From Ctena decussata (taxonomy: Eukaryota; Mollusca; Bivalvia; Lucinida; Lucinidae), in assembly GCA_963989385.1 (NCBI GenBank), contig OZ022498.1, forward strand, positions 104,765,298-104,829,297: a stretch of 64,000 bases of DNA. Direction: 5' to 3'. The notes under the pieces were generated by a model that worked only from the letters and a program-made list of their open reading frames with translations, made no database searches and was not told where the DNA came from. Each line of letters opens with the position of its first letter. The first letter of the stretch is position 1. Below are positions 2,270-5,776 of this stretch, one piece after another. Position numbers and translations under genes: made by a program.

Positions 2270-2392
2270 TCGACTAGTCTTGTCTAGTCTATCCCATAAC
2301 CTTGGGAGGTCGTCGGGGCGCCACAGATGGCTTTACAAATATCCCTTTCCGTCTAGTCCTGTCTTCCGCTGCCCTAGTTGAGCTAGCAAAGT
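2270..2392 (-). mobile_element. LINE-B 3' end, part 1 (split by the Transib-like element)
   Basis: On the - strand this is the 3' terminal part of the LINE-B family. It parallels 48450-48550, sharing TATCCCATAACC and GTCCTGTCTTC blocks. It stops exactly at the CACGGTG terminus of the element inserted at 2393 and resumes at 5777. The tail next to 2270 carries degenerate CTAGT/CTATT repeats, matching the (ATAGA)n tail of other copies. Confidence 0.8.
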
Positions 2393-2979
2393 CACGGTGC
2401 ATAACCATATCGGACGCTATCTGTGAAAACTGGACTCTATCTGTGTATTTCGGATTCTATTTGCGTTAGTTTCGGATTCTATCCGTCCCAAAATGGAAAA
2501 CGAGGTAAGGGTGGGTGTTAATAAACTCTAATATAATTGTAAACAACACATTTTCTTATGGGGCATAAGGTGCACGGAACATCAGACATCCGTGTCTTCC
2601 AGTATCTATAGCTGTTATGCCTAATTCGTATTTACTTTCGAGTCTACAAGCTGGAATGGAGGTCAAGATTTAACAATTTTGAAGAGTGTGTCCACTTTGA
2701 TTGCCGATCAGTTGCGAACGCAATGGAAAGAAAACAGATCGGTTGGATAAATTTGACCCTAATGAATGAATTTAAAATTTTGTAAGGCTCTGAGTTGAAA
2801 GAATATCTCCTTTTTGAAGAAAATCGGATTTTTTTACCTTTTACAATGGCACCGGATGCTATATGCGCCTGGCACAAGACTCTATCAGCGGCTAATCGTG
2901 CTTCACACAGGACTCTATCTACCAATATCATCGGAAACTATCTGTGCTTCAGAAGCATGGGCCTACATTTGGTACTCGG

Positions 2980-3421
2980 ACAAAACGGACCATGGACGAA
3001 ACGGACCAGACAAAACGGGTCACGGTTAGGACAAAACGGACCACGTTTCAGGACAAAACGGACCCCGTTTCAGGACAAAACGGACCACGTTTCAGGACCA
3101 GACGGACCACGCTAGAAAACAAACCAGACCATTGATTGGTGCCAATTAAAAGATTAAGGAGTATATAATTACCAAAGACAATGTTAAATGGTCACAATTA
3201 TTTGACTACTGTTCATGATCTCAACTATCTTTGTTTGTCGCAACCATCTAATTAATTTAATGGTAAGTTTTTTTTTATCTTTTTAGCATGCTTTCTCAAG
3301 GTTAACGGAAAATGTGAACGTTTTGAACTGAACGTGGTCCGTTTCGTCCTGAACGTGGTCCGTTTTGTCCCAAGCGTGGTCCGTTATGTCCGTGGTCCGT
3401 TTTGTCCGTTATGTCCCTAAT
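2980..3421. repeat. Inverted arrays of GGACAAAACGGACCACG
   Basis: From 2980 to 3115 the motif GGACAAAACGGACC(ACG) recurs about every 21-22 bp. From 3325 to 3420 the reverse complement (CGTGGTCCGTTTTGTCC) recurs. The two arrays face each other across about 200 bp and could form a long cruciform. Open frames here only translate the repeat and are not genes. Confidence 0.8.
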
Positions 3422-3604
3422 TCCTACATTTGTCTAGTGATTCGAAAATGGTATCAACACGAGACAGATTTCTATTTAGACATCGTTCATGATTGATTGA
3501 TTCCTCTTCTTGCACACATTTTAAAACTTTTCAGAGAGTTTTGGTCACCTCAAAGCCGAAGAAATGAATCAACTTTTCAATACGCGCGTATACATATGTT
3601 ATAA

Positions 3605-4910
3605 GTCATGCTGAAAGTCATCTTGAACAGGCTTAAAGCACAAGCCGAAGAGATAATCGCTGAGGAACAGGCTGGGTTCCTAGCGGGAAGGAGCACCTCA
3701 GCCTTAGAGTCCTGTGTGAAAAGTATCTCCAACATCAGCAGAATCTGTGCCGTGTCTTCATTGATTTAAAAAAAAACCTTTGACAGGGTATGGTATGCAG
3801 CCTTATGGGCCACCATGCGGAGGTGCAATGTCGGTGCAGGTCTAGTTCGCACCAATGAGCAGCTGTACGACAAGGCTACAAGTGCAGTCCTGATCAATAG
3901 CAGCACAGGAGAATTGTTCAGAACATTAGTTGGAGTAAGACAAGGATGTCTTCGGTCACCCACCCTCTTCAACATTTAACTCGAACGGATCATGTCTGAT
4001 ACTCTGGAAGAATGTGGTGAGGGGGGGGGGGGCATGGGCGGCAGAGACATTGTCAATCTGCGGTTTGCCGATGACAGGCGGCAGAGACATTGACAATCTA
4101 CGGTTTGCCGATGACATAGATGCTCTAGCTGAGGAAGAGCAGAAACTAAAGGCTCTAGTTGACAGTCTCGACCAAACCTGAACAAGGTTAAGATGGAGAT
4201 CAGTGCTGAGAGGACCAAACTGATGGCGAACAGCGCAGATGGCATCCAGAGGGAGATCAAGGTAAAAGGGCAGAAGCTGGGTATTGTAAGCAGCTTCAAA
4301 TGCCTTGGGTCAGATGTCTCAGATAATGGCTCAAAACAGGAGGTTCTCTCAAGTATTGCACAAGCCACTTCAGCTCTTACCAAGCTGAAACCAATTTGGA
4401 GATAGCGGCATGTCTCTTGGATCAAGGGTGAGACTTATGCGCTCCCTTGTCATTTCCATATTTCTGTATGCCTTTGAATCGTGGGCCTTGACAGCACAGT
4501 TAGAGAAAAGAATGCAGGCCTTTGAAATGAGATGCTACCCAAGGTTACTGAACATTTCGTACAAATACCATATAACCAATGAGGAGGTTCGCAGGAAGCC
4601 CCAGGCAGCCATTGGAGAATATGATTGGCCCCTGACGCTGGTCGGGAGGCGGGGGCTGGGGTGGTTTGGCCACGTCTCAAGGTCTTCTGGTTCAGCAAAG
4701 ATAATTCTTCAGGGCATAGTGAAAGGGGAGGGGGAGGGGTGGACGGAGGAGGAGTTGGGAAGACAATATCAAGGAGTGAACAGGGATGGATTTTGCCAGC
4801 TTGGCTATGGCAGCTGGAGTCGGGACAAGGTGGAAAGGGAAAGTCATCTGTGGTGCACCAACGACCTCGTAAGGTTATGGGATAGAATAGAATGAATAGA
4901 ATAGTTATAA
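3605..4910 (+). pseudogene. LINE-B reverse transcriptase, decayed copy 1
   Basis: The translation follows an endonuclease/RT-type LINE common in invertebrates: MLKVILNRLK, EEQAGFLAGRST, VRQGC, RFADD and WFGHVSRSSG in order, ending in an (ATAGA)n tail near 4880-4905. It begins inside the RT domain, so it is 5' truncated. Damage includes an in-frame TAA around 3768, a stop after FNI near 3977, a 12-G run at 4021-4032, a 40-bp tandem duplication of the FADD region (4041-4080 and 4081-4120) and further frameshifts. It lies inside the Transib-like element, so it inserted after that element formed, or was carried within it. Confidence 0.85.
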
Positions 4911-5734
4911 GTACAAACGGTGGCAGACACCTAGAGTTGCGGTTTATTATGAACAACATCTATAGGTTGGTGTAACTATATGCATGATATTAGGTCAAAG
5001 AAACCCATAAATGGAGAGAGCACTGTCAACTTCCTTTACATCTTTTGAGTGAACGGTTGTGGGTGACATGGCCTCATTTTGGCAATCTACTGTGGACACG
5101 AATTGAGCGTGCGCCACAGGACTTTTTTCAAATTCGGGAATTAGCCTTCGCCGTTTTGGCTGATGCACTCACAAGTTTGATCTTTTACGACGTTTTTGGC
5201 TGAAAAAAAGAAAACAAACATCACAATTAAGGTCCGCTGCTCACAAGTATAGTCCGTTGCCTTGAGGACAACATCTGTCCGTTGGCATAAAATTACATTA
5301 TTTTAGAGACACAAATAGAATCCGGAACATTGAAAATAATGGGTGTTGTCTTTTAAACATTGATATCAACGTAAAGATTTATTTATGCACCTAACGACAT
5401 GTGTAAATTATCAAAAACATAATTATCGTCGTAAATTAAGGACAAAATTCATTACCTACAAATAAAAACACTGAGTTTTTCCTTGTTTTCATGGGCCATA
5501 TATGCTCCTGCACTATCACGCTGCATTTGATTTCACTGATGACAAGCACTGAACATCGCTAGCTGAATAATATCGACGGAAATATTAGGAAAAAAAAGGT
5601 ATGTGTTCCGTGGAAACCATGAAACCCATTACTTACACGTTTTGTCCCTTTTTCTTCGACTGAATCGCCGAAGCGTCCATGGCAAGTAACAAATAGAGTC
5701 CGTAGCACTCACAGATAGAGTCAAGTAACGCAGA
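4911..5734. other. Interior of the Transib-like element, no gene
   Basis: No coding similarity is recognised. Scattered GTCCGTTG/GTCCGCTG and ACAAATAGAGTCCG motifs near 5230-5315 and 5690-5702 match subterminal motifs on the left side and may be transposase-binding repeats. Confidence 0.5.
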
Positions 5735-5776
5735 TTTTCACAGATAGCGTCCGATATGGTTATGCACCGTGAAAGT

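What the first reader, a model, noticed from the sequence alone, without database searches (positions are those of the whole stretch)
2388..5776. Transib/RAG-like transposon termini in a bivalve-type genome
Seen: perfect 37-bp TIRs starting CACGGTG, a perfect 5-bp duplication (AAAGT), and an empty-site reconstruction against the LINE-B copy near 48550. Known: Transib and RAG-like elements end in CAC-type heptamers resembling the RSS CACAGTG and make 5-bp duplications. The heptamer is followed by a 23-bp gap and an A-rich GTGAAAA stretch, reminiscent of a 23-RSS, though the nonamer match is weak. Inferred: an active or recently active Transib or RAGL transposase mobilised this non-autonomous element.
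Basis: partly seen in the sequence, partly recalled or inferred. Interest (0 to 1): 0.78.

Follow-up and report, generated by a model that had tools for sequence, protein, structure and literature searches.

The report
Non-autonomous CAC-ended DNA transposon family
The feature is one copy of a fairly young jumping-DNA family that seems unable to move by itself; its ends look a little like those of the transposons behind our antibody-gene shuffling system, but the enzyme that moved it was not found and the tests do not tie it to that system.

Summary
Window 2393-5771 is a complete transposon copy with perfect 37-bp inverted ends (CACGGTG...) and a 5-bp duplication AAAGT, inside an older LINE copy. 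It belongs to a family: 272+275 TIR matches in the genome, 0 in the reversed control. Of 22 insertions with both ends, 20 have exact 5-bp duplications, 2 one mismatch. ORF lists of the window and five copies showed no transposase by eye. Most copies carry a LINE fragment amplified with the element.

The Transib/RAGL interpretation is only partly supported. Duplication length and CAC ends fit. But two Transib queries of the 1.66-Gb assembly hit only one RAG1-like gene, which lies in an intact RAG1L-RAG2L transposon with other ends (CACATACAAACTTC). The family's duplications are AT-rich (16 of 100 G+C; flanks 114 of 280), whereas RAG, ProtoRAG and Transib are reported to prefer GC. No autonomous partner was found, but 447 of 547 TIR places were not even listed, so this is no proof of absence. 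Best reading: a non-autonomous cut-and-paste family moved by a missing or unrecognised CMCT-type (perhaps Transib-like) enzyme. Interest is modest.

The parts
2388..2392 (.). left 5-bp target site duplication AAAGT
   Evidence: 20 of 22 family insertions have exact 5-bp duplications
2393..2429 (+). left terminal inverted repeat, 37 bp, starts CACGGTG
2393..2971 (+). left arm of the element up to the nested insert, with GGACTCTATCTGTG-like subterminal repeats
2962..2971 (.). left copy of the 10-bp duplication CCTACATTTG around the 451-bp insert
2972..3422 (.). 451-bp nested insert with inverted GGACAAAACGGACC-type repeats; the other 19 copies compared do not have it at this place
3423..3432 (.). 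right copy of the 10-bp duplication CCTACATTTG
3423..3606 (+). rest of the left arm, ending with GTTATAAGT (3598-3606), left duplication of the LINE insertion
3607..4903 (+). decayed 5'-truncated LINE (RT) fragment with GAATA tail, present in 19 of 20 copies examined
   Evidence: 87-91% complementary to the LINE copy at 48621-49537, whose ORF 48866-49492 has RVT_1; the fragment's own ORF 4410-4892 gave no Pfam hit
4904..4912 (.). GTTATAAGT, right duplication of the LINE insertion
4904..5771 (+). right arm of the element
5735..5771 (-). right terminal inverted repeat, perfect complement of 2393-2429
5772..5776 (.). right 5-bp target site duplication AAAGT
2237..2392 (-). left flank: part of an older LINE copy into which the element jumped
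5777..5939 (-). right flank: continuation of the same LINE copy
   Evidence: (I25)

Best explanation
Shown: a DNA transposon family with 37-bp TIRs starting CACGGTG, about 270 copies if each TIR match is one of two ends, that duplicates 5 bp of AT-rich target (tendency C-WWWWW-G); no transposase was recognised in the copies whose ORFs were listed. Two degraded copies lack the LINE fragment that 19 of 20 others carry, so a LINE landed in an ancestral copy and the LINE-bearing form was amplified. Inferred: a DDE transposase supplied in trans bound the TIRs and the subterminal GGACTCTATCTGTG-like repeats, cut at CAC and joined the ends with a 5-bp stagger. Ends and stagger fit best a CMCT-clade (CACTA-Mirage-Chapaev-Transib) enzyme, Transib-like being the likeliest single type, now lost from the assembly or too diverged or split by introns to be recognised. 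It was probably not the genome's own RAGL transposon.
For: TIR 272+275 vs 0 control; 20 of 22 exact 5-bp TSDs, 2 with one mismatch, shuffled pairing mean 1.1, maximum 6 of 22; self-insertions with TSDs TACAA and ATAAT; LINE in 19 of 20 copies, empty site in L058 and L067; no transposase recognised by eye in ORF lists of the window, L031, L033, L037, L038 and L040; four peptides from arms and L067 without a significant Pfam hit; the genome's RAGL has another TIR. CMCT elements mostly share CA..TG ends and make 2-5 bp TSDs (PMC12730594, passages).
Against: No Transib transposase found in the assembly with two queries. AT-rich TSDs, the reverse of the GC bias reported for ProtoRAG, RAG and Transib (PMC8289069, passages). 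No autonomous partner found, so the enzyme class rests on end letters and stagger alone. That copies share perfect ends is partly by choice: they were fetched from exact TIR matches.
Confidence: 0.5

Rival explanations
1. The resident RAGL (RAG1L-RAG2L) transposon, intact on contig C10, mobilises this family in trans.
For: RAG1L (973-aa ORF) and RAG2L (474 aa) lie between perfect 14-bp TIRs with a 5-bp TSD; RAGL ends also start CAC and TSDs are 5 bp (PMC7204232, passages).
Against: RAGL TIR is CACATACAAACTTC; the family's CACGGTGCATAACC shares CAC and two more of 14 letters, and lacks the AAA at positions 8-10 of the protostome RAGL consensus. The RAGL end pattern has 228 matches of its own. 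Family TSDs are AT-rich.
Confidence: 0.06
2. A hAT5-type transposase (hAT lineage with 5-bp duplications) moved the family.
For: hAT5 makes 5-bp TSDs and lies among animal hATs (PMC12730594, passages); the genome holds at least 101 hAT dimerisation-domain places (150 of 257 candidates scored); one of them, C6:45117973, lies 8.9 kb from a family arm at C6:45109038; subterminal repeats are common in hAT (recalled).
Against: Compared by eye, none of the 38 hAT places on C1-C4 lies within 50 kb of the 100 listed perfect TIRs, all of which are on C1-C4; the C6 case may be chance and could not be read. Third base C is unusual for hAT ends (recalled).
Confidence: 0.2
3. A true Transib family whose autonomous copies have been lost from this individual or lineage; the non-autonomous copies are its footprint. 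(This overlaps the best explanation.)
For: CAC...GTG ends and 5-bp TSD; symmetric TIRs without a nonamer, as in most Transib families (PMC8289069, passages); copies average 1.5-2.0% from consensus, which leaves time for loss. Transib is rare in molluscs (one element in PMC10294476, passages).
Against: No Transib remnant found in 1.66 Gb, though the tool's first look passed only 14 and 1 candidates; AT-rich rather than GC-rich targets.
Confidence: 0.35
4. An undescribed transposase lineage with CAC ends and AT-rich 5-bp targets.
For: The combination matches no family that I could verify: Transib and RAG prefer GC, Ginger2 ends TGTNR (PMC2836005, passages), fungal EnSpm makes 3-bp TSDs, Chapaev 4 bp (recalled).
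Against: Absence of a partner is not evidence of a new enzyme; only part of the genome could be read.
Confidence: 0.2

Closest known systems
Transib transposons
   Same: CAC-type ends, 5-bp duplications, symmetric TIRs
   Different: no Transib transposase found in the genome; AT-rich target sites
RAGL transposons of protostomes (C. virginica, P. imbricata, N. geniculatus; PMC7204232, passages)
   Same: CAC start, 5-bp duplications
   Different: TIR fits CACTWMCAAACKTY at 5 of 14 positions only; no RAG1L-RAG2L seen between the ends; the genome's real RAGL has different ends
hAT5
   Same: 5-bp duplications
   Different: third base of the ends (recalled); no clear link to a hAT gene
[quoted passage not shown] PMC12730594, passages)
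   Same: CA..TG ends, duplications in the 2-5 bp range
   Different: no transposase to place it in the clade

Membership tests
Transib | 5-bp target site duplication | tested here: met
   20 of 22 exact, 2 with one mismatch
Transib | ends begin CAC, heptamer-like | tested here: met
   CACGGTG at both ends of all 20 copies printed; they were chosen by exact TIR matches
Transib | Transib transposase in the element or in an autonomous partner | tested here: not met
   only the single RAG1L gene is hit (14 and 1 candidates scored); probe valid, HzTransib 6pqn E 1.7e-110
Transib | GC-biased target sites | tested here: not met
   TSD G+C 16 of 100, flanks 114 of 280, 20 exact insertions; the bias itself is from PMC8289069 passages
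RAGL | TIR fits CACTWMCAAACKTYKBB | tested here: not met
   CACGGTGCATAACC fits 5 of the first 14 positions (consensus)
RAGL | convergent RAG1L and RAG2L between the ends, or ends shared with such an element | tested here: not met
   none seen by eye in ORF lists of the window and 5 copies; the one RAG1L found has other ends
hAT5 | 5-bp target site duplication | tested here: met
hAT5 | hAT transposase between the same ends | tested here: inconclusive
   38 hAT places on C1-C4, none within 50 kb of the 100 listed TIRs by eye; one on C6 is 8.9 kb from a family arm; 447 of 547 TIR places unlisted
CMCT clade | CA..TG ends and 2-5 bp duplications | tested here: met
   definition from PMC12730594 passages
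CMCT clade | transposase of the clade (C(2)C and H(3-4)H motifs noted for Plavaka, EnSpm and Transib) | not tested
   no transposase found to test

The most novel reading that the evidence does not exclude
The family was moved by an undescribed transposase lineage, related to the RAG/Transib/CACTA group but with AT-rich 5-bp targets, whose gene is missing from or unrecognised in this bivalve-type genome.
Probability: 0.2. Interest if true: 0.55.

Novelty: new member of a known kind. Interest (0 to 1): 0.33.

Why it matters
A mollusc and bivalve survey reports a single Transib element (PMC10294476, passages), so a real Transib footprint here would bear on where Transib and RAGL coexisted. As it stands the family is an ordinary non-autonomous transposon. 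The genome is of more interest for a second reason: it keeps a complete RAG1L-RAG2L transposon with perfect ends, beside 228 matches to its end pattern.

Tried and rejected
RAGL as source: made unlikely by the ends. Transib gene in the assembly: two protein queries, nothing but RAG1L. Larger TIR pairs as autonomous: L031-L036 (4.1-4.5 kb), L037 (6.0 kb) and L038 (9.5 kb) align to the family with other sequence inside; ORFs were listed for L031, L033, L037 and L038 only, and the long frames of L037 (up to 541 aa) are a tandem repeat by eye. L067 as the autonomous form: rejected, its right side is another repeat with 295 matches. Exclusion patterns for a partner: outer 13 bp with a non-family continuation, 11 places against 4 in the control and no inverted pair; inner 24 bp, 0 places; left-arm site, 0 places; right-arm site, 1 place, C11:46382880, not readable. 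Each filter passes only part of unrelated continuations (about 56%, about 42%, by base count), so they are not exhaustive. Four peptides in Pfam: best hit E 0.12, COA8, not meaningful. 23-RSS reading: nonamer 5 of 9. hAT link: none on C1-C4, one doubtful on C6. Papers: none held with both Transib and CACGGTG; the 2005 Transib paper is not held.

Full report
Observation. AAAGT flanks 2393-5771, and the first and last 37 bases are perfect inverted repeats. The window's own genome (1.66 Gb, 245 contigs) has 272 forward and 275 reverse matches to the 37-mer with up to 3 mismatches, against 0 for the reversed pattern: about 270 copies if each has two such ends. The joined flanks align across the junction to the LINE copy at 48402-48597, 77% over 202 positions, so the insertion site is reconstructed as claimed.

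Family. I fetched 20 stretches around TIR pairs from the 100 listed exact matches, so their ends match by choice. With the window and nested copies, 22 insertions have both ends: 20 show an exact 5-bp duplication and 2 one mismatch; shuffled pairing gives 1.1 on average and 6 at most. Two insertions lie inside other copies of the family (L047, TACAA; L048, ATAAT). The first 30 listed TIR places, the window's own two among them, all align to the family. Ends differ from their consensus by 2.0% (left 330 bases, 20 copies) and 1.5% (right 170 bases, 19 copies, L037 left out) on average; copies chosen for exact TIRs lean young. L027 and L067 are 87-88% similar to the reference copy L040 over 572 and 539 bases.

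Anatomy. The typical copy is 2.93 kb (L040). The window copy is that plus a 451-bp insert with a 10-bp duplication. In 19 of 20 copies examined (window and L031-L050 without L048) a decayed RT-LINE fragment with a GAATA tail sits between two, often mutated, copies of GTTATAAGT; L050 lost that region. The pre-LINE junction, searched as a 28-mer, gave 185 places with up to 3 mismatches; of the 30 read, 2 (L058, L067) lack the LINE tail, both in degraded copies. So the LINE landed in an older copy, about 1.6 kb long by joining the arms (1627-1642 bases in three copies; not seen whole), and the LINE-bearing form spread. ORF lists of the window and five copies show LINE remnants and tandem repeats but no transposase that I could recognise. 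Both ends carry repeats of a GGACTCTATCTGTG kind, likely binding sites (inferred).

Is it Transib? Duplication length and CAC ends fit. A Transib probe that matches HzTransib at E 1.7e-110 finds in this genome one place at E 0.003, inside a RAG1-like gene; a full-length Transib from the protein collection finds the same place at E 0.05. The RAG1 family model finds one gene, E 8e-77, of 4 candidates scored. The tool scores only candidates of a loose first look (14 and 1 here) and reads exon by exon, so a diverged or split gene could be missed. In the 20 exact insertions the duplications hold 16 G+C of 100 letters against 114 of 280 just outside (Fisher p 4.5e-6), with C at -6 and G at +6 in 10 of 20 each; 71 end flanks show the same. 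ProtoRAG, Transib and RAG are reported to prefer GC (PMC8289069, passages).

Is it RAGL? The RAG1-like gene (973-aa ORF; PF12940 and RING; RAG1L of PDB 6b40 at E 3e-182) faces a convergent 474-aa RAG2-like gene with kelch repeats and a PHD finger (RAG2L of 6b40 at E 1e-21). Both lie between C10:7323258 and 7333769 inside perfect 14-bp TIRs CACATACAAACTTC with duplication CCTAG, 10,512 bp in all. These ends fit the protostome RAGL consensus CACTWMCAAACKTY at 13 of 14 positions; the window family's ends fit at 5 (PMC7204232, passages). So the genome has its own RAGL transposon and the window family is not part of it.

Looking for the partner. The 13 outer TIR bases with a filtered non-family continuation occur at 11 places (4 in the control), with no inverted pair. 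The 24 inner bases with such a continuation occur nowhere. Similar filters at a splice-like site in each arm gave 0 and 1 places; the one, C11:46382880, could not be read. The filters pass only about half of unrelated continuations. At least 101 hAT places exist; none of 38 on C1-C4 is within 50 kb of the 100 listed TIRs by eye, while one on C6 is 8.9 kb from a family arm. The partner may share long stretches of both arms, differ in its ends, lie among the 447 unlisted TIR places, or be gone.

Conclusion. The element behaves as a non-autonomous cut-and-paste transposon; this the family shows. The enzyme is inferred. CMCT-type ends and a 5-bp stagger make a Transib-like enzyme the likeliest single candidate, but of four Transib features tested two are met and two are not, so I do not file it as Transib. 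RAGL membership fails its tests.

Noticed in passing
L052/L053, G000:C10:7323258-7333769: Intact-looking RAGL transposon, 10,512 bp: RAG1L (973-aa ORF) and convergent RAG2L (kelch + PHD, 474 aa), perfect 14-bp TIRs CACATACAAACTTC, duplication CCTAG.
   Followed up: partly
G000, genome-wide: 228 exact matches to the RAGL end pattern CACATACAAACTTCYYYGRK, 0 in the reversed control, though one RAG1L gene was found (4 candidates scored); of 65 strings shown 51 are the left-end type. This suggests many non-coding or truncated RAGL-ended copies; none was read.
   Followed up: partly
L067 and 295 genome places: A repeat with a sharp end CATAGTGAAGAAACTGCGTACTTGTACTTCTACAGG; the two bases before it vary in the listed places, so it looks like a terminus of another mobile family.
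   Followed up: no
window 2972-3422: 451-bp element with inverted GGACAAAACGGACC-type repeats and a 10-bp duplication CCTACATTTG.
   Followed up: partly
left and right arms of the family: ATG followed by a 5' splice-like site near both ends (ATGGAAAACGAG/GTAAGG left; ATGGACGCTTCGGCG...GT/GTAAGT right), as if two convergent first exons were kept from an autonomous ancestor (not tested).
   Followed up: no
window 51978-59613: Three direct copies spaced 3,220 bp, 98-99% alike over the 300 bases compared, each with a 166-bp tandem array.
   Followed up: no
window 26541-28755: 455-bp tandem array, 4.9 copies.
   Followed up: no
window 42196-44928: 910-aa open frame with a reverse transcriptase domain, a LINE with a long intact frame.
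   Followed up: no
window 60132-61028: 298-aa sulfotransferase-domain ORF on the minus strand.
   Followed up: no
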